Made by a program: the position numbers and the translations under genes. A stretch of DNA of 64,000 bases from Streptomyces sp. WMMB303 (lineage in GTDB: Bacteria > Actinomycetota > Actinomycetes > Streptomycetales > Streptomycetaceae). The stretch covers positions 3,212,501-3,276,500 of the forward strand of contig NZ_JARKIN010000001.1 of NCBI RefSeq assembly GCF_029351045.1, read 5' to 3'. This document shows, piece by piece, positions 23,357 to 39,070 of this stretch (positions are counted from its first letter, which is position 1; each line of letters opens with the position of its first letter). Under the pieces are notes generated by a model, which did no database searches, was not told the DNA's origin, and saw nothing but the letters and a program-made list of their open reading frames with translations.

Positions 23357-24375
23357 CAGGGCGGGGGCCGATGAGCGAGCCGCGATTCATCGACGTGTGC
23401 GCGGGGGCGGGCGGGTTGTCTCTCGGGCTGGAAGCCGCCGGCTTCGAACCCGTACTGCTCCTGGACAACAAACCCGCGGCCTGCGGGACGCTGCGCACGA
23501 ACCGCCCGGCATGGCACGTGCTGGAAACGGATCTGCTGGACTTCTCCCCTTCCCGGCATCCACAGATCTACGACGTCGATCTGCTCGCGGCGGGCCTGCC
23601 GCGCGTGAAGTCCAGCGCGACCGTGGCGCGGACCGACACCGGGGCCGAACTGCGCCTGCTGGAGGCGACCCTCTACCTGGCACATGCCGTGCGGCCCCGC
23701 GCTCTACTCATCGAGAACGTGCCGGAACTGGTCGACGCGGCGGACTTCGAGCGCATCCGCGACTTCATCCGTCGGGAGCTGGAGCATCTCGGCTACTGCT
23801 TCGAATGGTTCGTCCTGAACGCCGCCGACTTCGGAGTGCCGCAGATCCGCAGACAAGGGCTGCTGGTCGCGCTCCTGGAGGAGTACTTCGGGCGATTCCG
23901 TCCGCCGGAGCCGACAGTGCGCGAACATCTGTCGGTGGGCAGTGCGCTGCACCGCTCGATGGCCGCGGGCGGGTGGCGGGACGCCGATCGATGGGCCGCA
24001 CAGGCGGCCGGCGTGGCCCCGACACTCGTGGGTGGCTCCGACCGTCGCGGGGGCGCGGACCTCGGGCCGACCGGAACGAAGAAGGCATGGGCCCGGATGG
24101 GCGTCGACGGGGGCACCGTGGCAGACAGCGTGCCCGGGCCCGACTTCCGCTGGGCCCCGGAGGCGGGACGACACGGAATGGTCAGGATCACCACGGAGCA
24201 GGCCGCTCTGCTGCAGGGCTTCCCGCCCGACTGGACGTTCAGCGGGAGGAAGACGGCCCGCTATCGCCAGATCGGGCACGCTTCCCCACCACCGGTGGGC
24301 GAGGCGCTGGGGGTGGCGATCGGAGCCGCACTGAACGCTTCCGGTTCCGTCGGCGGATACACTTCAACCCCATGA
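23353..24375 (+). CDS. Cytosine-5 methyltransferase homologue lacking the catalytic Cys
   Basis: The 340-residue protein starts at GTG 23353, overlapping the vsr stop (GTGA) with AAGGA upstream. Motif I is intact (FIDVCAGAGGLSLGLEAAGF), as are motif VI (LLIENVPELV), motif VIII-like QIRRQGLLVAL and the C-terminal motif X-like ASPPPVGEALGVAIG. Motif IV, normally GGPPCQxFS with the nucleophilic Cys, reads AAGLPRVKSS, so neither PC nor any nearby Cys is available. The protein cannot act as a normal C5 methyltransferase. All other blocks are well kept, which suggests a selected role such as a DNA-recognition or regulatory subunit of the intact enzyme encoded next, rather than decay. The next gene overlaps by ATGA. 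Confidence 0.85.
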   Translation: MTGRGPMSEPRFIDVCAGAGGLSLGLEAAGFEPVLLLDNKPAACGTLRTNRPAWHVLETDLLDFSPSRHPQIYDVDLLAAGLPRVKSSATVARTDTGAELRLLEATLYLAHAVRPRALLIENVPELVDAADFERIRDFIRRELEHLGYCFEWFVLNAADFGVPQIRRQGLLVALLEEYFGRFRPPEPTVREHLSVGSALHRSMAAGGWRDADRWAAQAAGVAPTLVGGSDRRGGADLGPTGTKKAWARMGVDGGTVADSVPGPDFRWAPEAGRHGMVRITTEQAALLQGFPPDWTFSGRKTARYRQIGHASPPPVGEALGVAIGAALNASGSVGGYTSTP

Positions 24376-25688
24376 CCAGCCCAGGCGCACAGGACCAGCA
24401 TCTCGACGGAGTCCGTATCCTGGACCTCTTCGCGGGTCCCGGCGGGCTCGACGTGGCGGCACACTTCCTGGGCTTCAAGAGCGTGGGGATCGAGTGGGAT
24501 CGGAACGCCTGCGAGACACGTTACGCGGCCGGCCTGCCGACGATCCACGCCGATGTGAGCGTCATGCGCGAGTCCCGGTTTCAGGAGATCCCCGCCTCGG
24601 TGGACGTTCTCGCCGGTGGGCCGCCCTGTCAGTCCTTCTCCGTGGCGGGCAACGGCGCCGGGCGGCGGGCGCTGGACACGGTGAAGGAGTTCATCCACCG
24701 CCTCGTGGAGGGGGAGGACGAATCCGAGATCGACAGGGACCTGCACTCCCTGGGCGATCCGCGTACCGCTTTGGTGCTGGAGCCGCTGCGCTGGCTCCTC
24801 AAGGCCATCGAGACGGACGGCCGTGATCCGTACAAGGTGATCGTTCTTGAGCAGGTCCCCGAGGTCCTGCCTCTCTGGGAGGTCTACGCGAAACTCCTGC
24901 GCGGCGGCGAGGGGAGGCTCAGGGGCGTCAAGTACGAGGCGGAGTGCTGGAAGCTGAAGACCGAACAGTTCGGTGTGCCGCAGACCCGGAAACGTGCCGT
25001 ACTCGTCGCCCGGTTGCCCGGTGACGGAGCCATCCGACCGCCGAAGGCGACCCACCGACCTTTCGATGTGCTGCGCGGCAGACGCAACGCCGCGCAGCCG
25101 GACATGCTCCCCACCGATGCGGCTGTCTCGGGTGCCGAGAAGCGCTGGGTCTCCATGGGCGAAGCACTCGACAACGCGAGCCGGGTCGAGGGCTCGCCGG
25201 TGGACGTGTCGCGGCTCCGCACGGACGGCAGCATGAAGTTCTTCGTCGTCTCCAACTACGGCTCCGGAGGCGATCCCAAGAATCGCGGCCGCCGCTCCTC
25301 CGCCGAGCCCGCCTTCACGGTCACGGGGAAGATCTCCCGGAACAAGGTGTACAGGAGCCTCGCGGAGTACGAGGCCCAGAGGTCGGACCGTTTCACCATC
25401 CCCGAATCGGGGGTGCTCCAGACCTTCCCGCACAACTTCCCCTGGTCCGGGAACGACCGGGCTCAGCAGGTCGGCAATGCCGTGCCGCCGCGTCTGGGCA
25501 TGCACGTGCTGGGTCGCGCATTGCGCGGAGCGGCGCCCTCGGACGAGGAGTTGGCAGCCGCCGGCACCTGGCCGAATGTGCCCCGGGCGACCACGGAAGA
25601 GCTGCGCAGGCTCGGGTGCGGCGATCGAAGCCAATGCCCGCCCGACTCACACAAGGTCATTCCTCCTCGTGGGGAGCCCTCCCCCTGA
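24372..25688 (+). CDS. DNA cytosine-5 methyltransferase
   Basis: The 438-residue enzyme starts at ATG 24372 inside the previous stop codon. Motif I (ILDLFAGPGGLDVAAHFLGF), motif IV with the catalytic Cys (AGGPPCQSFSVAG), motif VI as VLEQVPEV (Gln in place of the usual Asn, catalytic Glu kept), motif VIII (QTRKRAVLVARL) and motifs IX-X (QQVGNAVPPRLGMHVL) are all visible. It transfers a methyl group from SAM to cytosine in a recognition site that cannot be read from sequence. In the island it most likely marks host DNA as self, the role of DrmMII in class 2 DISARM. Its last 32 bp overlap the 3' end of the convergent DUF6339-like gene. Confidence 0.93.
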   Translation: MTSPGAQDQHLDGVRILDLFAGPGGLDVAAHFLGFKSVGIEWDRNACETRYAAGLPTIHADVSVMRESRFQEIPASVDVLAGGPPCQSFSVAGNGAGRRALDTVKEFIHRLVEGEDESEIDRDLHSLGDPRTALVLEPLRWLLKAIETDGRDPYKVIVLEQVPEVLPLWEVYAKLLRGGEGRLRGVKYEAECWKLKTEQFGVPQTRKRAVLVARLPGDGAIRPPKATHRPFDVLRGRRNAAQPDMLPTDAAVSGAEKRWVSMGEALDNASRVEGSPVDVSRLRTDGSMKFFVVSNYGSGGDPKNRGRRSSAEPAFTVTGKISRNKVYRSLAEYEAQRSDRFTIPESGVLQTFPHNFPWSGNDRAQQVGNAVPPRLGMHVLGRALRGAAPSDEELAAAGTWPNVPRATTEELRRLGCGDRSQCPPDSHKVIPPRGEPSP

Positions 25689-26544
25689 CAGGCGCCTCCG
25701 CGAAGAGTTCCGCGAAGTGACCCACGAGGATCTCGACCGCCTCCGGCGGCGCGGACTGTTCCTCCGGCCCCTCCGGCAGACGATCCCTGGGCGACGGCAG
25801 GGCTGATTCGGCCCCACCGATCCAGTCGCGCAGCGGCTCTCCGTCGCGCTCCACGTCAGGAGCGAGGACGTCGTACATCAAGGTCGCGGCGGCGGCGTTG
25901 ACCGCGGACGTCAACGCGTTCACCTCCCGCCCGGTGCGCACCGCCCCCCGTTCCATCAGTCCGACGAGGGCCAGTGCCGTGGGGCGGTGATCGATGACGT
26001 CGAGTCGGAGCGCCGAGTTGAGCATGTCCTGACTGCCGCATGCCGCGACCACGGGTCGATAGTCCGAGCCGTCCCGGAAGAGTTCGGCCACCCACCAGAG
26101 GCGGGCGAACGCCTGCTTGTAGTGCGGGCCGACGAACCTGTCGCGCGCCACACGCGCCCGGGAATCACTCCTGCTCGGATCCGACAGGTGTCGCCAGACG
26201 ACATAGTCCGGGGCCACGCCGACGGCCAGGTACGTCCAGAACTCCTTGTCGGCGGCTTCCTTCCGGGTCATGCGCAGCGTCTCGTGGAGCCGCGGAGCCA
26301 ACCATGCGTCCGCCGCCGTGGAACGCTCGTGCCGGAATCGGCTCAGCGCGTCGTCGATCAGATCCCGGACCCGGTGCAGCCGCCATCGCGCGTCGTCGCT
26401 CGGCATCGGCTCGGCGACCTTGTTCAACGCGATGGACGGGATGTCGTCCCGTCCTTCGAGCACTCCTGCGGTCAGGTGTTCTGCAGCCTGCACGTCGGGG
26501 AGCAGAGCGAGCTGCTCCGGCAGGTGCTCGGGTCGGGAAGTCAC
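25657..26544 (-). CDS. DUF6339-like protein of the defence island
   Basis: GTG at 26544 overlaps the upstream stop as GTGA, giving 295 residues (VTSRPEHLPEQ). The body is helical with blocks DKEFWTYLAVGVAPDYVVWRH, KQAFARLWWVAELFRDGSDY and LMERGAVRTGREVNALTSAV. From memory this resembles DUF6339, a family seen in restriction-modification neighbourhoods; no catalytic motif is obvious. It is the last gene of the minus-strand operon headed by the sigma-ATPase frame, so its dose should follow that of the ATPase. An accessory or scaffold role is inferred only from context. Confidence 0.6.
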   Translation of the reverse strand: MTSRPEHLPEQLALLPDVQAAEHLTAGVLEGRDDIPSIALNKVAEPMPSDDARWRLHRVRDLIDDALSRFRHERSTAADAWLAPRLHETLRMTRKEAADKEFWTYLAVGVAPDYVVWRHLSDPSRSDSRARVARDRFVGPHYKQAFARLWWVAELFRDGSDYRPVVAACGSQDMLNSALRLDVIDHRPTALALVGLMERGAVRTGREVNALTSAVNAAAATLMYDVLAPDVERDGEPLRDWIGGAESALPSPRDRLPEGPEEQSAPPEAVEILVGHFAELFAEAPVRGRAPHEEE

Positions 26545-27533
26545 GCGGGAGCCTCCTGGTCGAGTCGTGCGATGTCGCGGACGCTGTCGGCCAACTCTTT
26601 CGGGACGTCGGCACGGCGGGCTGCCGCGTACTGAATACGCGGCTGCAGGTCCGTCCAACTCCCCTCGCCGATGCGGCGGCGATGCACTTCACGCAGCGCG
26701 TCCTCCTCGGACCGCCCGGGTAGGACGTCCGGGAGCATCTCTCTGAGTACCGCACCGCGCCAGTCGGCCGGGAAGAGCGGCGTCCCGTCGTCCTCGAGTT
26801 CCAGATCCCCGATCGCCGTGTGGAAGACCGCGACCCAGGCATCGGCACACACCTGGGCCATCAACAACTTTCCGAAGAGCTTCTCCGTCTTCGTGCCCTC
26901 GGCTTCCACGAGCCGTACAAGCCCCTCGAAGTCCGAGTTCAGACGGACGGCCGGAATCCGACCCGAGGTGTCGACGACCCATGGCGCGTCCCGGAAGTCG
27001 CGCAACCACTCGGCGCCCCGGGCGAAGCTCACCGTGGTGACGTCCAGTTCGCGGTCCCTGCGGGGGGCCTCGGCCGCCATGTCGATCAGCCACTCACGCT
27101 CGGTGGAGGCGATGATCCGGCCGGGCACCCCTCCGACCGTGGCGATCACATACACGACGAGCGACGCACGATCCATGTGGTCGTCCCGGTCGAGTTCGAG
27201 CTCCCCGGCCCAGTCCGCGCCGGCCGCCACGACCGGCTGCAGTCGGGCCACCGTACGCGCGTTCGTCGCCCCCTCGGTCAACACGGCGACGACCGAGATG
27301 TCGGACCAGAGGCCCCTTCTCTCGATCTCACGGGCAGGGACGGTCGCCCCCAGGGACAATCGTGCGGTCTGCCAGTCGGCACGTTCGGCCATGCCGAGCG
27401 CCACGACCTGATCGACAACCGAGTGTGCCTTGGAGTCCAGCTGCTCGCGGAAGTCCCCGGGGCCACGGAGCCGGACCGCCGTGACCCGTGCGGTCACCTC
27501 ACCGGTCGGTCGAGGGTAGGGGTACGCTCTCAC
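26541..27533 (-). CDS. Unrecognised protein coupled to the sigma-ATPase gene
   Basis: This 330-residue protein starts at GTG 27533, overlapping the ATPase stop by four bases, and overlaps the next gene by four bases. It was not recognised. The first half looks beta-rich with an acidic patch (ELELDRDDHMDRASLVVYVIATVGG). The second half is helical (SDFEGLVRLVEAEGTKTEKLFGK, MAQVCADAWVAVFHTAIG). No nuclease, helicase or transferase motif is seen and there is no signal peptide. Strict four-base overlaps on both sides argue that it works in a fixed ratio with the GHKL ATPase and the DUF6339-like protein. Confidence 0.6.
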   Translation of the reverse strand: MRAYPYPRPTGEVTARVTAVRLRGPGDFREQLDSKAHSVVDQVVALGMAERADWQTARLSLGATVPAREIERRGLWSDISVVAVLTEGATNARTVARLQPVVAAGADWAGELELDRDDHMDRASLVVYVIATVGGVPGRIIASTEREWLIDMAAEAPRRDRELDVTTVSFARGAEWLRDFRDAPWVVDTSGRIPAVRLNSDFEGLVRLVEAEGTKTEKLFGKLLMAQVCADAWVAVFHTAIGDLELEDDGTPLFPADWRGAVLREMLPDVLPGRSEEDALREVHRRRIGEGSWTDLQPRIQYAAARRADVPKELADSVRDIARLDQEAPA

Positions 27534-29677
27534 GCGATGATCTCCTTGTTCTCCTGGAGTTCGACAACGAGGCTGGTCAGCGCGGCCCGCGTGGATTGCG
27601 TGGACACATCGGTGACCCCCTTGAAGACGGCACGACGGGCGCCCGGCGAGAAGCGCAACACTCCGTCGACCACCTCACAGTTGCTGACGGCGACCACTTC
27701 GGCCCATTTGACGACCGGTCGGGGGCCGGATCGGACCTCCAGCTTGGCCACAGGGTTCATGTGCCAGGGTCCACCGATCGAGGGAACCCTCACCTCACCG
27801 GTGACCTGCCAGGCGCCGGAGGAGGAACACTCCGCCTGCAGCTCGTCCAGTTCCGGTGGCGCCGTCGCCCCCTTGACCTTGCCCGTTCGTCGGCCCTTGC
27901 CCGAGAGCTTCAGCCGGTTGCCGACCTTCTTCGTGCCGCGCGGCTTCTTCTCCTCCGGGATCGCCACCAGAGCGTGCACGGCCCGGTTCGTCTCGGTCGT
28001 CAGAGTGGCGACGCGCCGATGGGCCGAGGGCATGTAGCGCATCCTCAGCTCTTCCGTCTGGCCCCATTTGTTGTGCTCGGGAGGCTCCGAGGACCGCAGG
28101 AACTCCTCGGCCTCGTCCGCGAACGGCGCGTCGTCCCCCGCCGCGCGTCCGGCGAGCAGGACCGCCTGGAACGGGTTGGTGCCCATCGGGAGCCCGGGGA
28201 CCGAACTCGTCCTCACCGTCATCCGGTTGCCGCGCATCGCCGTGACCTGATTGATCCTGCCGTCCGCGTCCGAAGCCTCCGTCACGAGGAGAACCGCCCG
28301 GTGCTCGCCCGCCGTGTCCGGGAGACCGTCCCGCGCGGGCAGCTTCAAGGGCACGGTCACGCAGGCCACCTGCCCCGCCTCCGTGAGGCGCTCCACCGTG
28401 CTGCCGCGCAAGAAGGCCTCGAGAGCACGCGAACGGGCGGGTTGATGGCGATGCGGATCGACCCGCTCCTCCGCGATGTGCTCCACGCCGTTGCGCAGCG
28501 TCCGCACCGAAGCCTCCAGCATGGGCTGCTGCTCGCCGCCCCCGGTCATCGCGGCCCAGAAGTTGCGCCCCAGCGCCCGAACCAGTCGCTGATGCATGCG
28601 CTCCAGGCTGTCCTCGTCGTCGCCGGCTTCGCCCTCCTGAAATCGACCGGCCTCCAGACTGGCCACATCGTGCGCTCCGACGATCAGGAAGGACGTGCCG
28701 GGAGCAGCATCCTCTCGCGTGAGGTGCAGGTCCGCGACCGTCTTCTCGTCGGCCCACCAGGAGCGGACGACCTCCGGGTTCTCCGCCTCGGAGTCCGGCA
28801 TTCCCAGCCAGGCGGGTCCGGCGTACCGCCGGCCCGCGACCTCCCGCCACGGCAGATCGAGACGCCCGATCACCCGGCGTTCCGTCCGCCCCTCGTGCGG
28901 GTGGGAGAGCGTGGAGTTCATGAGGACGAGGCCCAGCCGGCTGGTGGCCCACAGCGTGGCCTTCCCGAGGCCGTAGGACCCGCCGGCCGACGTGTCCGAC
29001 TTGCGGCTGTCCAGTTGCCGACGCACTACTGCGGAGAAGCGTCCGTCCTCGTAGTCGTCGCCGGTCAGTCCGTTGGCGTTGTAGTCGTCGACGCGCAGCA
29101 GTACCAGCCGATCCCGCTCGGCCATCTCGCGCAGACCGGCGCCGATGACGCGACCGACCTTCTGATCCTGCGCGGCGGCTGCTTCGAAGTGGGGGTGAAG
29201 ATCCCCCCAGCGGATCGCCGAACGGAACCGGGCCAGCACTTCACCGGTGAGTTCATGCAGGGTGTAACGAACGCCCACCGGGTTGTCGTTCGACCTGACC
29301 CGCTCGTCGAGGCTGTTCTGCGTCGCCTCACGAGCCAACACCTCCAGATCGGCCTCGAAGGCGAAGGCGGCGGCGTTGCCGAACTCACGTCCTCCATCGT
29401 CGTGTTCTGGGCGGTGATACCAGAGAGCGGGAGTCTCCGTGTTCCCGCACTCCTGTTGTGCGCCCGCCGGGCTCTCTGCCTCCGCTTCGCTCATGCCCCC
29501 GAAGATCTGTCGCAGCGCCACCGCATGCTCTTCGCGGGGCTCGGAGCGATGCGCGAGCCATGCCTCGATCAGAGCACGCGTCACCCCCAGACGGCCCGCG
29601 AGTTCGACTTCGTCCATCCCATACAGCTGCATGCGCTCGGCCAACCACGTGCCGAAATCCGTCTCGTTCGAGGCCAC
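27530..29677 (-). other. Possible separate HTH-GHKL ATPase from an internal start
   Basis: GTG at codon 484 (29675-29677, VASNETDFGTWL) is preceded by AGGAG with a 10-nt spacer. Translation from here gives a 715-residue HTH-ATPase with both domains intact. The 60 codons just upstream use AGG, AGA, AAT and GCA, codons rare in Streptomyces, and encode a basic stretch without domain character, as if an intergenic region were being read through. Confidence 0.5.
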
Positions 29678-31126
29678 CCGCTCTTCTCTCCTGTCGGACC
29701 CGTTCATTGCATTCGGCGTGTCGACATTCCTGTCGGAGCCGAGCCTGCCGACACGCCTTTCACTCCGTCGCCGCGGACGGCTGTGAGGTGCGGACCTCAC
29801 GACGATCATTTCCCTGCCGCTACGGACGATCCTCACGTCGTGTCGCGGGGCACCGCCCTCCTGCGGCTGCTCGTACACGCAGGTGCGGAGCTGCTCCAGG
29901 GCACGCTTCTCCAACTGGCGGATCCGTTCACGCGTGAGTCCCAGTTTCCTGCCGATCTCGTCCAGCGTCCAGCTTTCCCCGTCGACGAATCCGTAGCGCA
30001 GCCGCATGATTTCGCGAGTTCTCTCCGGGAAGGCACATGCATCGAAGAGCTGGAACAGTTCTTCGCGAACGAATTCGTGCCGCAGAACCTGCTCCGGCCC
30101 CGGCACCCGACCGTGCTCGTCGACGACGAGATCCCCGAGCGCGACGTTTTCGCCCACCGGCTGATCCAACGACAGGACCGGCCGATGGAGCAGGGGAAGG
30201 TACCGCTTCACCTTCCCCGGATCCAGCTCGCACGCCAGGGCCAGATCGTCCACGTTGGGAATTTCGCCGCGCTCCAGGCGGGCCCGCTCCGCCTTGCGCA
30301 ACCTGTTCAGATCTTCCCGGACGTGGACGGGGAATCGGATGAGGGATCCTTCGTTCGCGATCGCCCGGGATATCGCCTGCCGAATCCACCAGGTTGCATA
30401 GGTGGAGAATTTGTACCCTCTGGAGAGATCGAATCTCTCAAGGGCTCGGATCAGCCCGAGCGTTCCCCACTGTGCGAGGTCCTCGTGCATGGCGGCTCTC
30501 GCCGGATGTCCCGTGTCCCTCAGAGTCTTGTGCACGAGCCGCTGATTGTGGGCGACCATCGCGCTCATGGCCCGATACGCCTCGCTTTCCCGGGAGAGGG
30601 TTGCCATATATCTCTCGGGCAGCGGTTCCGAGATTCCTCTCTCCCCTCGGAACAGGAGACAGAGCCCGACCTCCTCCTCGGCCTTCAGCACCCGGTTCGG
30701 GCGGGCCACCCTCCGGTCGGCCTCGAGCAGAGCGCGAGCGGCGCGCCGAGCGCTGTCCGTGTCGTCACGGTGCGACGTCGCCCGCGAGGAGACGGGACCC
30801 GGGGGTTCCGGTTCCCTCCGGGGGGAGTGCGTCTCCGACCGCTCGGGCAGCTCACCGGGGCCCGCCCGCAGATCGACAGTCCTCGCACCGCCCGGCTCGA
30901 ACTCCACCGGCTCCCGGTCGTCTTCATCGGCGACGGACGCCGCGGCCACGGCTTCGTACAGCGCCTGCGTCTGCCGGTCGCCGAGGCGGGCGCCCCTCAT
31001 CACCTGGCTGACAGCGGTGTGCCGGTCGACTCCTTCGTCGGTGAATCGCCGTATGAGTCGTACCAGCAGGTCACGCCCAGCCTCGGTCATCGGCCCCGCG
31101 GCCGTGTCACCCGGATCCGTGACCAT
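27530..31126 (-). CDS. Sigma-70 factor joined in frame to HTH and GHKL (MORC-like) ATPase
   Basis: One uninterrupted frame of 1198 codons. Residues 1-150 are poorly conserved. Residues 185-255 are sigma region 2 (MVAHNQRLVHKTLRD, EDLAQWGTLGLIRALERFD, KFSTYATWWIRQAISRAI). Region 3 is about 256-320 and region 4 about 360-415 (LDEIGRKLGLTRERIRQLEKRAL), a complete group-2-like sigma-70. A basic linker (420-485) precedes an XRE-like HTH (LAGRLGVTRALIEAWLAH, about 492-545). The GHKL ATPase then shows its N-box (E600-ATQNSLDE), G1 (VDDYNANG) and G2 (GGSYGLGKATLW). Iyer, Abhiman and Aravind described MORC/MutL-like ATPases in bacterial restriction-modification loci. The sigma fusion is not known to me. 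An internal GTG at 29677 may give the HTH-ATPase alone. Confidence 0.85.
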   Translation of the reverse strand: MVTDPGDTAAGPMTEAGRDLLVRLIRRFTDEGVDRHTAVSQVMRGARLGDRQTQALYEAVAAASVADEDDREPVEFEPGGARTVDLRAGPGELPERSETHSPRREPEPPGPVSSRATSHRDDTDSARRAARALLEADRRVARPNRVLKAEEEVGLCLLFRGERGISEPLPERYMATLSRESEAYRAMSAMVAHNQRLVHKTLRDTGHPARAAMHEDLAQWGTLGLIRALERFDLSRGYKFSTYATWWIRQAISRAIANEGSLIRFPVHVREDLNRLRKAERARLERGEIPNVDDLALACELDPGKVKRYLPLLHRPVLSLDQPVGENVALGDLVVDEHGRVPGPEQVLRHEFVREELFQLFDACAFPERTREIMRLRYGFVDGESWTLDEIGRKLGLTRERIRQLEKRALEQLRTCVYEQPQEGGAPRHDVRIVRSGREMIVVRSAPHSRPRRRSERRVGRLGSDRNVDTPNAMNGSDRREERVASNETDFGTWLAERMQLYGMDEVELAGRLGVTRALIEAWLAHRSEPREEHAVALRQIFGGMSEAEAESPAGAQQECGNTETPALWYHRPEHDDGGREFGNAAAFAFEADLEVLAREATQNSLDERVRSNDNPVGVRYTLHELTGEVLARFRSAIRWGDLHPHFEAAAAQDQKVGRVIGAGLREMAERDRLVLLRVDDYNANGLTGDDYEDGRFSAVVRRQLDSRKSDTSAGGSYGLGKATLWATSRLGLVLMNSTLSHPHEGRTERRVIGRLDLPWREVAGRRYAGPAWLGMPDSEAENPEVVRSWWADEKTVADLHLTREDAAPGTSFLIVGAHDVASLEAGRFQEGEAGDDEDSLERMHQRLVRALGRNFWAAMTGGGEQQPMLEASVRTLRNGVEHIAEERVDPHRHQPARSRALEAFLRGSTVERLTEAGQVACVTVPLKLPARDGLPDTAGEHRAVLLVTEASDADGRINQVTAMRGNRMTVRTSSVPGLPMGTNPFQAVLLAGRAAGDDAPFADEAEEFLRSSEPPEHNKWGQTEELRMRYMPSAHRRVATLTTETNRAVHALVAIPEEKKPRGTKKVGNRLKLSGKGRRTGKVKGATAPPELDELQAECSSSGAWQVTGEVRVPSIGGPWHMNPVAKLEVRSGPRPVVKWAEVVAVSNCEVVDGVLRFSPGARRAVFKGVTDVSTQSTRAALTSLVVELQENKEIIA
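29689..29741 (-). promoter_or_regulatory. Direct repeat overlapping the internal ribosome site
   Basis: On the minus strand CGGxTCCGACAGGA occurs twice, at 29702-29689 and 29741-29728, matching at 13 of 14 positions and 39 bp apart. The copy nearer the internal GTG contains its AGGA ribosome-binding bases, so a bound repressor would block translation or transcription of the ATPase part. Confidence 0.45.
29715..29757. promoter_or_regulatory. 9-bp inverted repeat inside the sigma-ATPase frame
   Basis: GGCGTGTCG (29715-29723) and CGACACGCC (29749-29757) are perfect arms around 25 bp. The left arm runs into the palindrome TGTCGACA (29719-29726). Together with the nearby CCTGTCGGA copies this gives a cluster of TGTCG/CGACA half-sites typical of an operator. 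Confidence 0.5.
29783..29800. promoter_or_regulatory. 7-bp inverted repeat inside the sigma-ATPase frame
   Basis: GTGAGGT (29783-29789), a 4-nt loop and ACCTCAC (29794-29800) form a perfect hairpin or compact operator. It lies about 105 bp upstream of the internal GTG start. Confidence 0.45.
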
Positions 31127-31275: not shown

Positions 31276-32892
31276 ATGCGCATCATTCCGAGCGAGATCT
31301 CGAGCCGGACCAGGAGCAAGGCCGAGCGCGATGTGTTCGCAGCGTTGCAGGCGATCCCTGACGATCAGAGCGTGGCACTGCACACGGTCCACCTCCCCAA
31401 GCACCACAGGAAGCGAGTGGGCGAGATCGACTTCGTGGTCATCACGCCCGACATCCTGCTCTTCATCGAGGTCAAGGGCGGACGAATCGTCCAGCATGAC
31501 GGCAAGTGGTACTACGGACCGCCCGGTCGGGAGGACCGGAAGGAGGAGAGCCCCTGGGAACAGGCCAATGCAGGGATGCACGAGTTCGAGCGCGAGATGA
31601 GCGTGCTGGTCGGCAACCTGAGACGTCAAGGCGTACTCGGCGGCTATCTGGTCATCACGCCTGATGTGGACATTCCCCGTATGACGCACTTCGAGCCCGA
31701 GCAGTACCTGGGGAGTACCGCCTGGAACGGCGGGCGCGGCCTGGCCGGCGGAATCGAGCGTGCCACCGCCCACTGGCGTTCGGAGAACAAGTGGGCCGGC
31801 CCCATCTCCCCGGCGCTCCGGCGGAAGATGCTGGACGCCATTCGGCCCGACTTCGACCGGGTGCCGAACCTTCGGTCCCGGTTGACCGACCTCGACGCCA
31901 CCTTCGAGCGTCTCACCGCCGAGCAGATGGAAAAGCTGGACGAGGTCGAGTCCAACAAGCGACTGATTCTCACCGGTGGCGCGGGGACGGGCAAGACGTT
32001 CCTCGCCGCGGAGGCGGCACGCCGCCGCGCCACGCACGGCAGCGTCCTGTTCACCTGTGTCGGCACCACCTTGGCGACCCATATGACGCGCGTACTCGCC
32101 GACGACGCGACAACCGTCCTGCCCTACCACCGGCTGGACGAGGTGAAGGGTCGTGTCTTCGACCAGTTGATCGTGGACGAGGCACAGGACCTGATGAACG
32201 TCGACTCCCTTCTCGGCACCCTGGATCCTCTGCTCTCGGGAGGCCTCTCCGAGGGACGCTGGCTCTTCATGCTGGACCAGAACAACCAGGTGCTGAACCT
32301 GGACGCCTACGATCCCGACACCTGGAAATGGCTGTCCGACCTCGGCTGCGTCGTGGGTCCTCTGCGGCGCAACTGCCGCAACACCCATCAGATCGTCGAT
32401 CAGGTCCGCTCCTACACCGGTGCCGACCTGGGCGTCGCGTCGGCGGGCGAGGGCGAGAAGGTGCGCTTCCCCGCCGTGCAGGACGTCCGGGACGAGGCGG
32501 CCGCTCTCGACGCCTACATCGACGGCCTCGTGGCCGAAGGCGTCTCCCCGGAGGAGATCACGCTGCTGTCCGTCTCCGGCGACTGGGAGACCAGCTCCGC
32601 ACGGCTCTCCGGACGTGCCTCCAGGATCCAGCGATTCACCGATGTCGTCGGGACAGACAACCGGAAGCGACGGCCCCTCTGGTCCTCGGTGTCGGACTTC
32701 AAGGGCCACGAGAACCACATCGTCTGTCTGATCGACCTCGAACCCGCCCACCTCGAAGGCCGACTCGACGCGATCTATGTCGCCTGGACCAGAGCGCGCT
32801 CACAACTGTGGATCGCCTGCCGGCCCGGTACCCGGGAGCTGCTGAAACAGCTGGGCATCGCGGTGCTGAGGCGGGAGGCACAGACCGCATGA
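31276..32892 (+). CDS. NERD nuclease-domain SF1 helicase
   Basis: The 538-residue protein begins with a NERD domain of the PD-(D/E)XK nuclease fold: E17, D52 in GEIDFVV and E65-V-K67 in FIEVKGG form the expected catalytic set. A UvrD/Rep-type superfamily 1 motor follows, with Walker A GGAGTGKT (234-241), Walker B VDEAQD (300-305), motif IV-like RRNCRNTHQIV and motif VI YVAWTRARSQLWIA. It would unwind or track DNA and cut it. It is the first gene of the DrmAB operon and overlaps drmA by ATGA. Such a nuclease-helicase could supply the nuclease function that DrmC gives in standard DISARM; that is inference. Confidence 0.85.
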   Translation: MRIIPSEISSRTRSKAERDVFAALQAIPDDQSVALHTVHLPKHHRKRVGEIDFVVITPDILLFIEVKGGRIVQHDGKWYYGPPGREDRKEESPWEQANAGMHEFEREMSVLVGNLRRQGVLGGYLVITPDVDIPRMTHFEPEQYLGSTAWNGGRGLAGGIERATAHWRSENKWAGPISPALRRKMLDAIRPDFDRVPNLRSRLTDLDATFERLTAEQMEKLDEVESNKRLILTGGAGTGKTFLAAEAARRRATHGSVLFTCVGTTLATHMTRVLADDATTVLPYHRLDEVKGRVFDQLIVDEAQDLMNVDSLLGTLDPLLSGGLSEGRWLFMLDQNNQVLNLDAYDPDTWKWLSDLGCVVGPLRRNCRNTHQIVDQVRSYTGADLGVASAGEGEKVRFPAVQDVRDEAAALDAYIDGLVAEGVSPEEITLLSVSGDWETSSARLSGRASRIQRFTDVVGTDNRKRRPLWSSVSDFKGHENHIVCLIDLEPAHLEGRLDAIYVAWTRARSQLWIACRPGTRELLKQLGIAVLRREAQTA

Positions 32893-35800
32893 GCGACCTG
32901 GGCGAGAAGGCCGAGCTCCTCTCCGATCACCGCGACGCGTTCGTGAGTTATCTGCGTGAGCAATTGGTGGGGCCCGCCGGCCGCGAGGACGAGATCCTGG
33001 TCGATCCCCCTGACCGCCGCTATCTGATGGGCACCCTCTATCCCCGCGGCGCCTCGCTGCAGGCGCACTCGCAGGCGGAGGGCGAGGAGGACTTTCACGA
33101 GGCCGCCGCCGGAAGCGAGGAGGAGGACACCTTCGCGGACGACCCGGTGGCCGAGGCGAACGCATGGTTGCCGTCGTCTCTCGGCTTCTCCTTCTTCACC
33201 GATGCCCATGAGATCGAAGTGAGGTGCGAGGCCTCGCGTTATCTCACTCACCGCGAGGGCGGGCGACGCAGTTGGCACAGGCAGCCGCGGCTCTTCTCGC
33301 ACACGACCGTCGAGAAGGACGACCCGAGCCCGATGCACGTGCTGGAGGGGCACGGTCGGCTGCACGTCCGGTGGCGTCCCTATGCTGCGGGACATCTCGT
33401 GACGTGTGTACTGGCGAACGCCCACAACGAGGAGGAGAGCACCTACAAGGACCGCGATCTGATGCTCTTCCAGGCCGGGTTGACGGTCACGACGGTCGGC
33501 GGGGAGGTACTCGAGTATCCGAGTACCCGTCTCACCAGTCGTGACGAGGAGGAGCAGGAGCTCCGCGTCCAGTACCGGCACGTCGTGACCCGGGCCGTGG
33601 GGCACGGATGCGCCGTCGAGTGGGACGACGGGGACGACGATGTGCCCTCACCGGTCACCTCGGTCCGGGCCCAGGTCATGCCCCGGCAGGTGGTCGCGCA
33701 CATCAAGCCGGACGGCCCCCGCGACCTCCCCGTGCTACGGCTCGCCCACCTCTCGCGAACGGATCGCTCGCCGGACGCTCTCCGAGCGGAGCTGCACTCG
33801 TTCGTCGAGGACTACCGCGGCTGGCTCGACGCCCAGCGCAGAGAGGCCGAATCCCTCAAACCGTGGGCCGCCGCCCCCGCCGCACGGATCCTCGACCGCA
33901 TCGCGCGCGCGGTCGAACGCGTCTCGTCCGGGGTCGACGCCCTCACCGCGTCGACCCCGGCGGGAGCCCAGGCCCGTGAAGCCTTTCGCCTGGCAAACCG
34001 CGCGATGGCGCTCCAGATGCTGCACAGTCGTCCGGAACTGGCGGGCAGCCGACGGACCAGGAAGAGCGACCTCGTCGAGCTGACGGAACCGCCCGAGGAC
34101 TACGCGTGGCATCCCTTCCAGCTCGCGTACTTCCTGCTCGTGGTCGAGGGCCTGATGAACCCGAACCACGAGGACCGGGAGACGGTCGATCTCATCTGGT
34201 TTCCGACCGGTGGCGGCAAGACGGAGGCGTATCTCCTCACCGCGTGCTTCGAGATCCTCTGGCGTCGGCTGCGGTTCGGTGCGGCAGGCGGCGGCACCGC
34301 CGTACTGAGTCGCTACACGCTGAGTCTGCTCACCACGCAGCAGTTCCAGCGGACGGCCACCGCCGTCTGCGCGCTGGAGTACATCAGGCTGGGATTCGAC
34401 GGAGCGCTCCCGCACGACCTGGGAGAGGAGCCCATCTCCGTGGGGCTCTGGGTCGGTCAGCAGACGACGCCGAACCGGATCGCCGACGCACAGGACGAGC
34501 TCTCCGCACTGAAGCAGTTGAACTCTCCCGACGACCGCTTCCTGTTGGAGCGTTGCCCCTGGTGCGGAACGGAGATCGTGCCGGAACGCCGGGCAGTCGA
34601 GAAGGATTTCGGCATCGTGGCCGATGGCGTCACCACAGGCTTCTTCTGCACTCGCTCCACCTGTGTGTTCCACGAACGGCTGCCTGTGTCCGTCGTGGAC
34701 GAGGAGATCTACCGCGAGCCGCCCACATTCGTGCTGGGCACGGTGGACAAGTTCGCCCGGCTGGCCTGGGAACCGGAGGCCGGATCCCTCTTCGGACGCA
34801 GAGACGGCAAGCGGCCGCCCTCACTCGTGATCCAGGACGAGCTGCACCTGCTGGCCGGCCCACTGGGGACGACCGTCGGACTGTACGAATCGGCGATTCT
34901 CGAACTGTGCACCCGCGACGGCTCCGCTCCCAAGGTCATCGCGTCGACGGCGACCATCCGCCGTTCGCATGACCAGGTCCGCGGCCTCTACGGACGTCCG
35001 ACCCAGCTCTTCCCCCCGGCCGGCATCAAGGCCGGCGAGTCCTTCTTCGCCACACCCGACACGCACAGGCCGGGCAGACTGTACGTCGGTGTCATGGCGC
35101 AAGGCCACACTGCCTCGACATCGACGGTCCATGTGGGGGCAGCGGCCCTGCAGGCCCCGAAGGAGGTCGGCGACAGCGACACCACGCGCGACGCCTACTG
35201 GACCACGGTGGCCTACCACAACAGCCTCCGGGAGCTGGGGCGGACGGTCACGATCGCCCGCGACGACATCCCGGCCCGTCTCGATCACCTGACGAAGGAC
35301 GACTCCCGACGACGCAAGCTGGACGACGACTCGGTGGTCGAGCTGACCAGCAACATCGCACGGGCCGAACAGCCTCGGCTCCTCGAGCGTCTCGGCAAGA
35401 GCTTCAAGGAACGCGGCAGCATCTCGTTCCTCGCCACGACCAACATGCTCTCCGTCGGCGTCGACGTCCCCCGACTCGGCCTCATGCTCATGAACGGCCA
35501 GCCCAAGACGACCTCGGAGTACATCCAGGCGACCAGTCGCGTCGGTCGTCGGCACGTCCCCGGACTGATCGTCACGCTCTTCCGCTCCACCAAACCGCGG
35601 GACAGATCTCACTACGAATCGTTCGGTGTGTACCACAGCTCCCTCTACCGGCACGTCGAACCGACCAGCATCACTCCGTGGTCCATGCCCTCGCGCAACC
35701 GGGCCCTGCACGCGGTGCTCACCATCCTCGTCCGGCACGGGATCAAGGGCCTCAATTCCGAGAACCGAGCCGGCGAGATCCTCGACCACCTGGACGAGGT

Positions 35801-36074
35801 CCACGCGATACGCGATCTGGTGGTGGACCATGTGCGCCGCGCCGATCCAGACGAGGTCGGTGCCGCGACCGAACAGCTGGACAGACTGATCGAGGAATGG
35901 CAGCAGCAGGCCGAGATCGCGCGCGGAGACGGAACACGTCTCTACTACCGGCCCCAGGGGCGGTCGTACGAAGCACTGCTCACCGACTTCGGCAAGCAGG
36001 ACGGTCTGTGGGAGACGCCCCAGTCGATGCGCAACGTCGACCGTGAATGCCTTCTCGTCGTGAGAGGAATGTGA
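32889..36074 (+). CDS. drmA: DISARM helicase DrmA
   Basis: The 1061-residue protein starts at ATG 32889 within the previous stop codon. The N-terminal 430 residues are specific to the family (EQLVGPAGREDEIL, DRRYLMGTLYPRG). The superfamily 2 motor has Walker A WFPTGGGKTEAY (440-445 the P-loop), a Cys-rich block CPWCGTE ... CTRSTCVFH near 557-595, Walker B as IQDELHLLAGPLGT (about 650) and the C-terminal helicase block ATNMLSVGVDVPRL, YIQATSRVGR. DrmA with DrmB is the conserved DISARM core and is reported to bind DNA with 5' overhangs, its loading being controlled by a trigger loop. The order nuclease-helicase, drmA, drmB, UvrD-like ATPase is unlike the described class 1 and 2 loci. Confidence 0.88.
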   Translation: MSDLGEKAELLSDHRDAFVSYLREQLVGPAGREDEILVDPPDRRYLMGTLYPRGASLQAHSQAEGEEDFHEAAAGSEEEDTFADDPVAEANAWLPSSLGFSFFTDAHEIEVRCEASRYLTHREGGRRSWHRQPRLFSHTTVEKDDPSPMHVLEGHGRLHVRWRPYAAGHLVTCVLANAHNEEESTYKDRDLMLFQAGLTVTTVGGEVLEYPSTRLTSRDEEEQELRVQYRHVVTRAVGHGCAVEWDDGDDDVPSPVTSVRAQVMPRQVVAHIKPDGPRDLPVLRLAHLSRTDRSPDALRAELHSFVEDYRGWLDAQRREAESLKPWAAAPAARILDRIARAVERVSSGVDALTASTPAGAQAREAFRLANRAMALQMLHSRPELAGSRRTRKSDLVELTEPPEDYAWHPFQLAYFLLVVEGLMNPNHEDRETVDLIWFPTGGGKTEAYLLTACFEILWRRLRFGAAGGGTAVLSRYTLSLLTTQQFQRTATAVCALEYIRLGFDGALPHDLGEEPISVGLWVGQQTTPNRIADAQDELSALKQLNSPDDRFLLERCPWCGTEIVPERRAVEKDFGIVADGVTTGFFCTRSTCVFHERLPVSVVDEEIYREPPTFVLGTVDKFARLAWEPEAGSLFGRRDGKRPPSLVIQDELHLLAGPLGTTVGLYESAILELCTRDGSAPKVIASTATIRRSHDQVRGLYGRPTQLFPPAGIKAGESFFATPDTHRPGRLYVGVMAQGHTASTSTVHVGAAALQAPKEVGDSDTTRDAYWTTVAYHNSLRELGRTVTIARDDIPARLDHLTKDDSRRRKLDDDSVVELTSNIARAEQPRLLERLGKSFKERGSISFLATTNMLSVGVDVPRLGLMLMNGQPKTTSEYIQATSRVGRRHVPGLIVTLFRSTKPRDRSHYESFGVYHSSLYRHVEPTSITPWSMPSRNRALHAVLTILVRHGIKGLNSENRAGEILDHLDEVHAIRDLVVDHVRRADPDEVGAATEQLDRLIEEWQQQAEIARGDGTRLYYRPQGRSYEALLTDFGKQDGLWETPQSMRNVDRECLLVVRGM

Positions 36075-36077
36075 CCG

Positions 36078-37970
36078 ATGAAGGACGTCCGGCACAAAGT
36101 CCGCAGGTCACAGACCATCGTTCCGTTCGGTGTCGGCGGGATCATCGACCTGCGTGGTGAATCGTTCGTCGCCGAGGACACACTGGGGTGGGCAGCCTCG
36201 GCCGAAGCGGTGGAAGCACCCCGTCTCGTCGCCAAGCTGGGCGTTCACGGTCTCCGCGCGGCCCCGGCCGTACCGTCCGGCAAGGCTGCGCATACGACGC
36301 GCTCGGGGCCGTTGTACGTACGCTTTCCCAAGTGGTTGTTCTGCCCTCAGTGCAGGAACATGCTGCGGTGGCGTCCGGATTATGAGGTCCGGAACAGACA
36401 ACCGACATGCCGGCAGTGCGCCGGAAAAGTGCAGTTGGCACCGATGCGTTTCATCCAGGTGTGCCGGGCCGGCCACATGGCCGACATCGACTGGCGCCGA
36501 TGGGCCCATTCCCGGAGCGACGACCACGCTCAGCGCCAGTGCCAGGTCAGCCGCCTCCGATTCGTCGCGACTCCGGACTCGTCCGGTCTGGAGGCCCTGC
36601 GGGTGCGCTGCGCCGTCTGCCGGGCCAGTCGCAGTCTGGCGGGGCTCAGCCGGCAGAACATCCTCGGCAAGTCCGGGTTCAGGTGCCCCGGCACCCATCC
36701 GTGGGAGTCGGAGTCCGACGAGGCGGAAGCCTGTGAGGAAACACCGCAGGCCGTGCAACGCGGAGCCTCGAACGTCTACTTTCCGATCACGCACTCGGCG
36801 ATCGACATTCCCGCGCCCTCGGGATTCTCCGTGGACGACGAGGCGGCCCAGGCCGTCATCAATGACAAGCACTGGACGATGCTCATGAGCGCCGACAACG
36901 GTCCCATGGCCCCCGCCTACCGCACCCTGATCGCCATCTCCTGCGGCGTCGACGAAGACTTCGTCGAATCGCTGGAGCGTCGCCATGCCGCCGAGACCGC
37001 CTCGGTGCCGTTCATGGGGGATGCCGACGACGACCTCAGCATCGCCGAGTGGGCCGCGTTCTCCGAACCCGAGTCCGCCGTCGACTCGGAGACGTTCTCG
37101 GTACGTCGGACCAGCCTCGAGGTGCATGACGGGGATCCGGTCTCGATGAGAGAGCTGGCTGCGCGGCTCTCGACAGTCGTCGTCGCCCATCGGATTCGCG
37201 AGGTCCGGGCGCTCGAAGGATTTTCCCGGTACGAACCGAGTTCCGTCGAGGGTGAGGCGGGCGAGGGCGGGCGAGTCGTATCCGTCAACACCCGTGCGCG
37301 GGCCCAGTGGCTGCCGGCTGTCGAGACCTACGGCGAAGGGATCTTCATCGCCGTCGACGAGGAACGGCTCAGGTCGTGGGAGCGCATTCCCTCGGTCCAT
37401 GACCGAACACTGTCGATCGCGAGGAATCTCGAAGCGTCCTTCAAGGTTGACTGGCTCAGAGGGAAGACCGGGCCGGCTCTGCTGCCTCGCTTCGTCATGC
37501 TGCACACGCTGGCGCACCAGTTCATTCGTCAACTCTCCTATGACAGCGGCTACAACGCAGCTTCGCTCCGCGAGCGCGTCTACGCGAGAAGCCACACCCC
37601 GGGGAGCGGCCATCCTCCCCAGGCAGGGGTGTTCATCTACACGGCCGCCGGAGACACCGAAGGAACGCTGGGCGGACTCGTCCGTCAGGGACAGCCCCCG
37701 AACCTGGTCGAGACATTGATCCGGCTGCTCGAGTCTGCGCAATGGTGCTCCCAGGACCCGCTCTGCGCCGACTCCACCGGCAGGTCCCTGGCAAACCTCA
37801 ACCGAGCCGCCTGCCATGCCTGCACGCTTCTCCCCGAGACGAGTTGTGAGATCGACAACTCTCTGTTGGACAGAACTCTCCTGATCGGTGACGGCACCGT
37901 CCCGGGCTTCTTCGGCGACGTCGTCCGTGCGGCGTTGGAGGAATCCGCTGAAGCCGTCGATCAGTCATGA
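36078..37970 (+). CDS. drmB: DISARM protein DrmB (DUF1998)
   Basis: The 630-residue protein starts 3 bp after drmA. The N-terminus has the family opening (VRRSQTIVPFGVGGIIDLRGESF). A four-Cys zinc site lies near residues 91-114 (CPQCRNM ... CRQCAGK) and is followed by MRFIQVCRAGHMADIDW. The DUF1998 domain follows at about 470-590 (FVMLHTLAHQFIRQLSYDSGY), with its Cys-rich end (CSQDPLC ... CHACTLLPETSCE). DrmB forms a complex with DrmA and stimulates it in DISARM. It overlaps the next gene by ATGA. Composition is less GC-biased than in the flanking chromosome genes, in line with horizontal transfer. Confidence 0.9.
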   Translation: MKDVRHKVRRSQTIVPFGVGGIIDLRGESFVAEDTLGWAASAEAVEAPRLVAKLGVHGLRAAPAVPSGKAAHTTRSGPLYVRFPKWLFCPQCRNMLRWRPDYEVRNRQPTCRQCAGKVQLAPMRFIQVCRAGHMADIDWRRWAHSRSDDHAQRQCQVSRLRFVATPDSSGLEALRVRCAVCRASRSLAGLSRQNILGKSGFRCPGTHPWESESDEAEACEETPQAVQRGASNVYFPITHSAIDIPAPSGFSVDDEAAQAVINDKHWTMLMSADNGPMAPAYRTLIAISCGVDEDFVESLERRHAAETASVPFMGDADDDLSIAEWAAFSEPESAVDSETFSVRRTSLEVHDGDPVSMRELAARLSTVVVAHRIREVRALEGFSRYEPSSVEGEAGEGGRVVSVNTRARAQWLPAVETYGEGIFIAVDEERLRSWERIPSVHDRTLSIARNLEASFKVDWLRGKTGPALLPRFVMLHTLAHQFIRQLSYDSGYNAASLRERVYARSHTPGSGHPPQAGVFIYTAAGDTEGTLGGLVRQGQPPNLVETLIRLLESAQWCSQDPLCADSTGRSLANLNRAACHACTLLPETSCEIDNSLLDRTLLIGDGTVPGFFGDVVRAALEESAEAVDQS

Positions 37971-39070
37971 GGGCGCCCTCTCTGCTCGACCTGGAAGCCG
38001 AACAGCGTCCGGTCATCGATCTGCCCTTCCGCGGCAGCCATGTCGTCACCGGGAATCCCGGCTCGGGCAAGACCGTTCTGGCCGTCCACCGGGCCTGGGC
38101 GCTGGCCACGATCGGGCGCGAGGTCACACTCCTCACCCGCTCCAATGTGTTGCATCAATATCTGGCCCAGCTGGCGCCCGACCTCACGGAGTCCGTCCGG
38201 GTCACCACCTCCTACCGGTGGATCCGGGACTTCTGGAACGAACGCTTCGGCTCGGACCCGCCGAAGACCGACGAAGAGGGATGGAACCACGCCTGGGTCG
38301 AGATGCAGCAGGCCTGCATCGTCCGAGGTGTCACATCAGCGGCGCACCTCGTCATCGACGAGGGCCAGGGGCTTCCTGTCGATTTCTACCGGTGGTGCCG
38401 CCTCCTCGGCGTCGAGTTCACTGTTTTCGCGGACGAGAACCAGCAGATCGGGGACGACCAGAGCACCGTCTCCGAGATCCACCGGGAAGTCGTGGCAAAG
38501 ACTCCTCCTCTGGTCCTGCGTGAGAACCGCCGGAACAGTCGGGAGATCGCCATGCTGGCCTCCGAGTTCCAGGAGGGAGGAGGGGAGCGAATCCCGCTTC
38601 CGTCCAGGAGCGCGGGTCGCACACCGACGGTCCTCAGTGTCCCTTCTCTGGACTATCTCATCACGGGTATCTCTCAGTACTTCTCCGCACACCCTGAGCG
38701 CAGCATCGGGATCATCTGTCGGTCGAATCACCTGCAACGCGACATCCAGAGTCGGCTCACGAACGTCGGACTGGCCGCGCACACCCAGGCCTATGTACAC
38801 GACGATCGGTATCGGAACACCATCGACTTCTCCAGCCGGCCCATCCGCATCCTGAACACGAACAGCATGAAAGGACTGGAGTTCGACAGCGTCTTCGTTC
38901 CCGATCTGGATGCGTACACGGAGGACCCGACTGGCGTGGCCGCGCGTCTTCGCTTCTTCGTGCTCTGCACCCGTGCCCGGGAGGACCTCCACCTCGCCCA
39001 TCGCGGCTCCCGGGAGCCCGCGATCCTCTCCGACATCCCCGAATCCCTGTTGGTCCGACATGCCGGCTGA
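37967..39070 (+). CDS. UvrD-like SF1 ATPase/helicase, last gene of the DrmAB operon
   Basis: The 367-residue protein has Walker A GNPGSGKT (29-36), Walker B VIDEGQ (129-134), the motif III-IV region FADENQQIGDD and LRENRRNSREIAML, and C-terminal motifs NTNSMKGLEFDSVFVPD and VLCTRAREDLHLAHRG. It is a minimal UvrD/Rep-type motor without recognisable 1B/2B insertions or a nuclease domain. It sits where many DISARM loci carry the phospholipase-D protein DrmC, which is absent here. With the NERD helicase it gives the operon two SF1 motors and one SF2 motor. No further island gene follows. Confidence 0.82.
   Translation: MRAPSLLDLEAEQRPVIDLPFRGSHVVTGNPGSGKTVLAVHRAWALATIGREVTLLTRSNVLHQYLAQLAPDLTESVRVTTSYRWIRDFWNERFGSDPPKTDEEGWNHAWVEMQQACIVRGVTSAAHLVIDEGQGLPVDFYRWCRLLGVEFTVFADENQQIGDDQSTVSEIHREVVAKTPPLVLRENRRNSREIAMLASEFQEGGGERIPLPSRSAGRTPTVLSVPSLDYLITGISQYFSAHPERSIGIICRSNHLQRDIQSRLTNVGLAAHTQAYVHDDRYRNTIDFSSRPIRILNTNSMKGLEFDSVFVPDLDAYTEDPTGVAARLRFFVLCTRAREDLHLAHRGSREPAILSDIPESLLVRHAG

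What the first reader, a model, noticed from the sequence alone, without database searches (positions are those of the whole stretch)
31276..39070. DrmAB flanked by two SF1 motors, one with a NERD nuclease, and no DrmC
The operon order NERD-helicase, drmA, drmB, UvrD-like ATPase differs from described class 1 and class 2 DISARM. The NERD active-site set E17, D52, E65, K67 is intact, so the nuclease could replace the phospholipase-type DrmC as the effector.
Basis: partly seen in the sequence, partly recalled or inferred. Interest (0 to 1): 0.65.

Follow-up and report, generated by a model that had tools for sequence, protein, structure and literature searches.

The report
Ten-gene DISARM-like restriction locus in Streptomyces
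The four genes flagged are part of a conserved ten-gene bacterial DNA-defence locus that couples the DISARM helicase pair to extra motors, a nuclease, a sigma-factor fusion and a pair of DNA methylases, one apparently dead, so it is probably an undescribed branch of the DISARM group.

Summary
In detail: NERD-SF1, DrmA, DrmB and a small SF1 motor lie in that order at 31276-39070, the named NERD residues are intact and no DrmC was found. But the unit is bigger. In 18 other loci the block continues upstream as Vsr, two C5-methylases and a divergent operon (sigma70-HTH-GHKL fusion, an unknown protein 'X27', DUF6339); of the 19 loci 5 lack methylase M1 and 4 lack Vsr there. M1 has lost its catalytic Cys in 37 of 39 relatives.

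Among 96 DrmA loci, 71 have an SF1 motor next to DrmAB and no DrmC; 21 have DrmC (one clade) and no SF1; 4 have neither. NERD is not constant: of 20 other X27 loci fetched, 17 carry sacsin-GHKL + UvrD + DrmA + DrmB instead. A sigma70 domain accompanies 32 of 35 loci with a small SF1 after DrmB and 0 of 36 other SF1 loci.

Verdict: a new variant of a known kind, a DISARM-like/paraMORC methylation-restriction system. NERD as effector is plausible for this version only. Function is untested; the sigma-SF1 link is the strangest part.

The parts
22919..23356 (+). Vsr-type endonuclease, 145 aa
   Evidence: TIGR00632 112.1 bits, cut-off 97.85; in the same place and strand in 15 of 19 close-family loci, window counted, one of them short
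23371..24375 (+). M1: C5-methyltransferase homologue without the catalytic Cys (motif IV GLPRVKS for GPPCQ; ENVP kept), 334 aa
   Evidence: PF00145 133 bits; Cys absent in 37 of 39 relatives; found in 14 of 19 close-family loci, one as a fragment
24372..25688 (+). M2: C5-methyltransferase with intact GGPPCQ motif, 438 aa
   Evidence: PF00145 95 bits; PPCQ kept in 43 of 43 relatives; in 19 of 19 close-family loci
25657..26544 (-). DUF6339 protein, 295 aa (PDC-M33C-like)
   Evidence: PF19866 50.4 bits, cut-off 23.2, scanned as a 333-aa reading that begins upstream of this start; in 19 of 19 close-family loci
26541..27533 (-). X27: 330-aa protein of no known family
   Evidence: nothing over a cut-off: Pfam only DUF1360 at E 0.024, no match in PADLOC or NCBIfam, none to DUF4420; X27 in 83 of 392 genomes of the genus
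27530..31126 (-). 1198-aa fusion: sigma70 regions 2-4 (about 180-415), HTH (495-543), GHKL/MORC-like ATPase (match 593-738)
   Evidence: PF04542, PF04539, PF04545, PF01381; PDC-M33A 69 bits; one frame in all 18 close orthologs
31276..32892 (+). NERD nuclease domain fused to SF1 helicase, 538 aa
   Evidence: PF08378 43.8 bits; RTasNERD-Hel 139 bits; catalytic residues conserved
32889..36074 (+). DrmA (YprA-type SF2 helicase), 1061 aa; alignment to solved DrmA begins at its residue 144
36078..37970 (+). DrmB (DUF1998/MZB), 630 aa
   Evidence: NF038324 442 bits; PF09369 30.1 bits, cut-off 24.2
37967..39070 (+). small SF1 motor, 367 aa, weakly HelD-like
   Evidence: UvrD_C_2 26.4 bits, just under its cut-off of 27.4; HelD model 48.5 bits, cut-off 419; solved HelD matched over 43 residues only, E 3.8e-6

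Best explanation
The ten genes 22919-39070 form one DISARM-like methylation-restriction system. Inferred mechanism: M2, helped by the dead partner M1, marks host DNA with 5-methylcytosine; Vsr repairs T:G mismatches left by deaminated 5mC; unmarked incoming DNA is engaged by an ATP-driven GHKL (MORC-type) clamp with X27 and DUF6339; DrmAB loads and translocates; the two SF1 motors help, and in this version the NERD domain cuts. Shown: gene content, intact motifs, conserved linkage, no DrmC found. Inferred: defence function, order of events, NERD as cutter, roles of M1, X27, DUF6339 and sigma.
For: The ten genes keep order and strand in 18 other loci apart from losses of Vsr or M1. X27 and DrmA lie within 16 kb in 67 of 83 X27 genomes by the coordinates on hand. 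17 of 20 further X27 loci fetched (of 75 outside the close family) have Vsr and C5-methylases + DUF6339-X27-GHKL + SAC-UvrD-DrmA-DrmB (L200, one of the 17, has a second methylase beyond DrmB). DrmA matches solved DrmA. Island GC 0.65-0.70 against 0.70-0.79 around it. C5-methylase + Vsr + GHKL + SF2 helicase is the published signature of MORC/paraMORC RM operons (PMC2292703, parts 1-2 of 4 read).
Against: No function was tested. M1 is missing from 5 and same-strand Vsr from 4 of the 19 close-family loci, so neither is essential. 12 of 83 X27 genomes have no DrmA hit, and 3 of the 20 X27 loci fetched show none nearby, one of them (L195/L225) on a short contig. NERD is absent from the commonest sister version. 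DrmA lies outside the DrmC clade. The two half-operons could be neighbours that travel together.
Confidence: 0.6

Rival explanations
1. One reading: the four genes alone are a DISARM variant in which the NERD nuclease replaces DrmC as the effector.
For: Same four-gene order in Deinococcus gobiensis plasmid P4 (L103) and in L139, without GHKL, X27 or DUF6339 profile matches; NERD residues intact; SF1 and DrmC mutually exclusive.
Against: NERD absent in 32 of 71 SF1-type loci; all 19 close-family loci also carry the GHKL operon and M2; L103 and L139 too have a C5-methylase and Vsr near by, L139 also a sigma gene.
Confidence: 0.2
2. Two independent systems sit side by side: a paraMORC/PDC-M33 restriction system with methylases (22.9-31.1 kb) and a DrmAB-SF1 system (31.3-39.1 kb).
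For: DrmAB-SF1 occurs without GHKL/X27 matches in many loci, and X27 without a DrmA hit in 12 of 83 genomes.
Against: 67 of 83 X27 loci lie within 16 kb of DrmA; the divergent operons are 149 bp apart; both halves switch version together: sigma-GHKL with NERD/SF1 in 19 of 19, GHKL without sigma with SAC-UvrD in 17 of 17.
Confidence: 0.2
3. Transcription-coupled restriction: the sigma domain and HelD-like SF1 tie the complex to RNA polymerase so that it samples transcribed or newly entered DNA.
For: sigma in 32 of 35 loci with a small SF1 after DrmB, 0 of 36 other SF1 loci, 0 of 21 DrmC loci; single SF1-sigma ORFs in five loci; sigma regions 2-4 are 42-48% identical to the three best other sigma-type ORFs of this genome.
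Against: Sigma could simply switch on the operons; HelD similarity is weak; three loci outside Actinomycetota with that SF1 have no sigma (L103-L105); 19 of the 32 are one close family; two rows dropped before the count for low DrmA score (L149, L150) have a sigma beside a DrmA-like gene without a small SF1 after it.
Confidence: 0.12

Closest known systems
DISARM class 1 and class 2 (DrmABC with DrmD/DrmMI or DrmE/DrmMII; class content partly recalled)
   Same: DrmA and DrmB as separate adjacent genes; a DNA methylase in the locus
   Different: No DrmC, DrmD or DrmE match in the rows shown; DrmA outside the DrmC branch (SH-aLRT 99); SF1 motors, GHKL, sigma and methylase pair added
MORC/paraMORC restriction-modification operons (Iyer 2008, PMC2292703, parts 1-2 of 4 read)
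   Same: GHKL ATPase with C5-methylase, Vsr, SF2 helicase and an RE-fold nuclease
   Different: The SF2 helicase here is DrmA with DrmB; the parts read do not mention DrmA/DrmB, a sigma fusion or a dead methylase
MZA (NCBIfam/PADLOC MzaA; partner list recalled)
   Same: sigma70-type protein; here joined to a GHKL ATPase
   Different: No Z1 or AIPR match in the rows shown; the MzaA match (191 bits, cut-off 800) is the generic sigma part
PDC-M33 (PADLOC candidate)
   Same: GHKL part matches M33A, DUF6339 protein matches M33C
   Different: X27 matches nothing in PADLOC; DrmAB cassette added
TALON (Bell 2025 preprint, PMC12458937; abstract, passages and figure legends read)
   Same: YprA-type helicase with a NERD nuclease
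   Different: TALON has TBP, TPR-CSD and an ARMADA-like helicase, largely in Chloroflexota; here DrmA/DrmB and SF1
NERD-helicase of DRT loci, Nhi and C3a187 (PADLOC models)
   Same: NERD and/or SF1 architecture
   Different: different partners; no reverse transcriptase among the ten proteins' matches

Membership tests
DISARM | DrmA helicase | tested here: met
   PADLOC 698 bits, 7s9v E 4.6e-145; but NF038325 908 bits is under its 950 cut-off
DISARM | DrmB (DUF1998) as a separate adjacent gene | tested here: met
   NF038324 442 bits, cut-off 240
DISARM | DrmC PLD nuclease | tested here: not met
   none in the locus; the own-genome PLD ORFs fit a DrmC profile in part or not at all; reported dispensable
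DISARM | DrmD (class 1) or DrmE (class 2) | tested here: not met
   none in the rows shown by PADLOC or NCBIfam for ten proteins (some lists cut at 25); DrmD profile gives none in the window. I did not check that a DrmE model exists in these libraries. Class definitions recalled
DISARM | DrmMI or DrmMII methylase | tested here: inconclusive
   C5-methylases present, but the best PADLOC families are DruM2 (M1) and MTase_II (M2); DrmMII is weaker
DISARM | DrmA inside the DrmC-bearing branch | tested here: not met
   DrmC+ rows form one side of a branch, SH-aLRT 99; window outside (quick tree, deep forks weak)
MORC/paraMORC RM | GHKL ATPase motifs | tested here: inconclusive
   PDC-M33A 69 bits; EATQNSLDE, a DDYNA-GLTG stretch and GGSYGLGKA seen in the sequence and shared with L188, read as GHKL boxes from recall; no Pfam GHKL match
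MORC/paraMORC RM | C5-methylase, Vsr and SF2 helicase in the neighbourhood | tested here: met
MORC/paraMORC RM | MORC-specific S5 motif | not tested
MZA | Z1 and AIPR proteins | tested here: not met
   no match in the rows shown
PDC-M33 | M33A and M33C | tested here: met
   69 and 25 bits, partial lengths
PDC-M33 | M33B | tested here: not met
   X27 and its 12 orthologs match no PADLOC family up to E 1; no M33B row among those shown for the other proteins. That a B part exists is inferred from the names

The most novel reading that the evidence does not exclude
A transcription-coupled DISARM-like immune system: a primary-type sigma factor, fused to a GHKL clamp here and to an SF1 motor in relatives, docks DrmAB, SF1 motors and a NERD nuclease onto RNA polymerase, while a conserved dead cytosine methylase acts as a site reader that tells methylated self from unmethylated foreign DNA.
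Probability: 0.12. Interest if true: 0.88.

Novelty: new variant of a known kind. Interest (0 to 1): 0.6.

Why it matters
How DISARM destroys DNA without DrmC is open. A large DrmAB branch in which SF1 motors are found where DrmC is missing makes that testable. X27, found in 83 of 392 sampled genomes of the genus, marks a system that would be fairly common there and joins two groups described apart, DISARM and MORC-type restriction systems. A conserved catalytically dead methylase beside an active one, and a sigma factor linked to defence motors, would each be unusual parts.

Tried and rejected
X27 as a distant DUF4420/PD-(D/E)XK protein: not supported by profile comparison (hhalign probability 0.1 in %; only three DUF4420 sequences) nor by a conserved ExK pattern. 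AlphaFold models of X27 (mean pLDDT 57) and DUF6339 (42) are poor; the X27 PDB fold search gave no match at E <= 0.001 and is not used. MZA membership: rejected. Promoter footprinting of the 31127-31275 gap: only short blocks conserved, no site claimed. Empty-site search for the island: the PrsW half failed, the PPOX half did not settle it; dropped.

Rows dropped before counts and limits: L061 and L064 (the same contigs as L046 and L049); the short loci L072-L101 were left out of the profile census; four loci with DrmA under 700 bits (L148-L151) were left out of the tree and counts, among them L151 with a weak DrmC match (111 bits) and L149 and L150 with a sigma beside a DrmA-like gene. Canonical DISARM rows fetched were 17 of the 30 over 1290 bits or joined to such a score; the window's close family (19 of 96) is over-represented. 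The census counted an SF1 at 150 bits or more within 2.6 kb and DrmC at 60 bits or more within 9 kb; weaker SF1 matches (32-92 bits) lie elsewhere in several DrmC loci. The tree is a quick one with long branches flagged. One search used the DrmA coordinates that one search printed (its list was cut) plus eight close-family positions worked out from earlier calls (27, 30 and 43), so 67 of 83 is a lower bound; relatedness of genomes is not corrected for.

In print: the sigma fusion, the dead methylase and the SF1/DrmC split were looked for in searches (searches listed 10 of 44 and 12 of 36 papers); no paper describing them was seen in the listings and passages read. Seen: PMC12458937 abstract, passages and figure legends; PMC9142583, PMC8011034, PMC13118837 and PMC11090510 passages; PMC2292703 parts 1-2 of 4. 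The Bell 2025 preprint states that many uncharacterized DISARM-like classes exist; its supplements were not looked at. Ofir 2018 was not read (recalled).

Full report
WHAT IS THERE. The four genes exist as described. Their ends overlap or nearly touch, so they are probably one operon. E17, D52, E65, K67 and K240 are numbered correctly and are kept in 18 close orthologs. The motor, Zn-binding and Walker motifs of DrmA, DrmB and the small SF1 look complete by eye (motif names recalled). DrmA aligns with solved Serratia DrmA from its residue 144 on, so the N-terminal EVE-like domain reported for class 1 (PMC12458937, passage) seems to be missing; a shorter acidic stretch lies where the published trigger loop (176-232; PMC9142583, passage) would be.

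THE UNIT IS TEN GENES. The island has GC 0.65-0.70 against 0.70-0.79 on both sides and begins at a Vsr gene (22919). A scan of genome contigs with the NERD protein gave 13 loci, all named Streptomyces or Streptantibioticus; a search of 392 genomes of the window's genus gave 7 close and 7 distant genomes besides its own. That this genus is Streptomyces is inferred from shared contigs. After removal of two duplicates, 18 close loci remain. In all 18 the M2, DUF6339, X27, GHKL, sigma, NERD, DrmA, DrmB and SF1 matches keep order and strand. M1 is missing in 5 of 19 (window counted) and a fragment in one; Vsr on the same strand is missing in 4 of 19. The sigma and GHKL parts are one open frame in all 18.

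A DEAD METHYLASE. M1 has GLPR(V)(K/R) where C5-methylases have GPPCQ. Of 39 M1-like sequences of 120 bits or more, window counted, 37 lack the Cys; the two that have it are the least alike (36 and 42% identity). M2 keeps PPCQ in 43 of 43. Against the window, M1 of the sister type is about 63% identical or more (rows of 70% and over were not printed), while M2 of the sister type is 41-52%. The dead partner is therefore the better conserved one, although 5 of 19 close loci lack it; a reader or scaffold role is inferred, not shown.

WHERE DRMAB GOES WITHOUT DRMC. 96 DrmA loci of at least 700 bits were scored with profiles built here. They come from the close family and the NERD search, relatives, a class-wide search that rang in 63 of 394 genomes and plasmids. 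71 have an SF1 motor within 2.6 kb and none of these has DrmC; 21 have DrmC and none the SF1 at the threshold; 4 have neither, of which one (L141) lies on a 6.7-kb contig. DrmC+ rows form one side of a branch (SH-aLRT 99; quick tree, deep forks weak), so the split may reflect a single event. Orders: NERD>DrmA>DrmB>SF1 21; SF1>DrmA>DrmB 18; NERD>DrmA>DrmB 15; DrmA>DrmB>SF1 14; SF1>DrmA>DrmB>NERD 3. The first order occurs outside the close family in a Deinococcus gobiensis plasmid and in L139, a genome of another family of the class; the last is in alphaproteobacterial plasmids.

THE COMMON SISTER VERSION. X27 is found in 83 of 392 genomes of the genus, DrmA in 142, both in 71; by the coordinates on hand 67 of 83 X27 genes lie within 16 kb of DrmA. 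Of the 75 X27 loci outside the close family 20 were fetched on both sides; 17 have Vsr and C5-methylases, then DUF6339-X27-GHKL, then SAC>UvrD>DrmA>DrmB; in one of them (L200) the second methylase lies beyond DrmB; 3 (L195, L204, L205) show no DrmAB. The SAC protein of L188 is a sacsin-like GHKL with an SF2 helicase. No NERD and no sigma reached the thresholds in these 20. NERD is thus the option of some branches only.

SIGMA. Regions 2, 3 and 4 all match. They are 42-48% identical to the three best other sigma-type ORFs of this genome and match solved HrdB and SigA. A sigma gene or domain is near 32 of 35 loci with a small SF1 after DrmB, 0 of 36 other SF1 loci and 0 of 21 DrmC loci; 19 of the 32 are the close family. 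In five loci SF1 and sigma are one open frame. Two low-scoring DrmA loci left out of the count (L149, L150) have a sigma without that SF1. The small SF1 resembles the RNA polymerase motor HelD weakly. This pairing is the best lead to something really new, but plain self-regulation would also fit.

MECHANISM. See Best explanation. Steps shown are gene content, motifs and linkage; every biochemical step is inference from named families: C5-methylases and Vsr (general knowledge), MORC-type GHKL (PMC2292703), DrmAB as a sensor of unmodified 5'-overhang DNA (PMC9142583), NERD as PD-(D/E)xK nuclease (PMC12458937).

PUBLISHED STATE. DrmC is reported dispensable and often missing (PMC9142583). The YprA-family preprint says the DISARM-like clade holds many uncharacterized classes and mentions NERD only for TALON in the passages read. 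MORC-type operons with C5-methylase, Vsr and SF2 helicase date from 2008. None of these, nor the eLife CoCoNuT paper (passages), was seen to describe this gene set.

Noticed in passing
L129, L130, L132, L133, L137: Single ORFs of about 970-1060 codons (stop to stop) that carry an SF1 motor followed by a sigma70 domain, downstream of DrmA-DrmB and upstream of a C5-methylase.
   Followed up: partly
L186, L187, L189, L192, L193, L196, L204, L205: A 980-1009-aa ORF of unknown kind recurs upstream of the methylase genes; in L187 it follows a further ORF with a GHKL-like IDNSLDAGA motif (by eye).
   Followed up: no
window 39939-40892 and L205 4675-5871: A similar aldo/keto reductase (by eye) flanks both the window island and the island of a distant relative: possible shared insertion site.
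   Followed up: no
window 31127-31275: Short conserved blocks (AGTCCATCA; TCGGTA-TTTTG) in the divergent intergenic region of most of the close family.
   Followed up: partly
L188 13444-18213 and L114 1736-6478: About 1580-1640-codon proteins that join a sacsin-like GHKL domain to an SF2 helicase (Pfam for L188; by eye for L114); sacsin-type matches precede UvrD-DrmA-DrmB in L112-L115, L117-L119, L121-L128, L169 and L171.
   Followed up: partly
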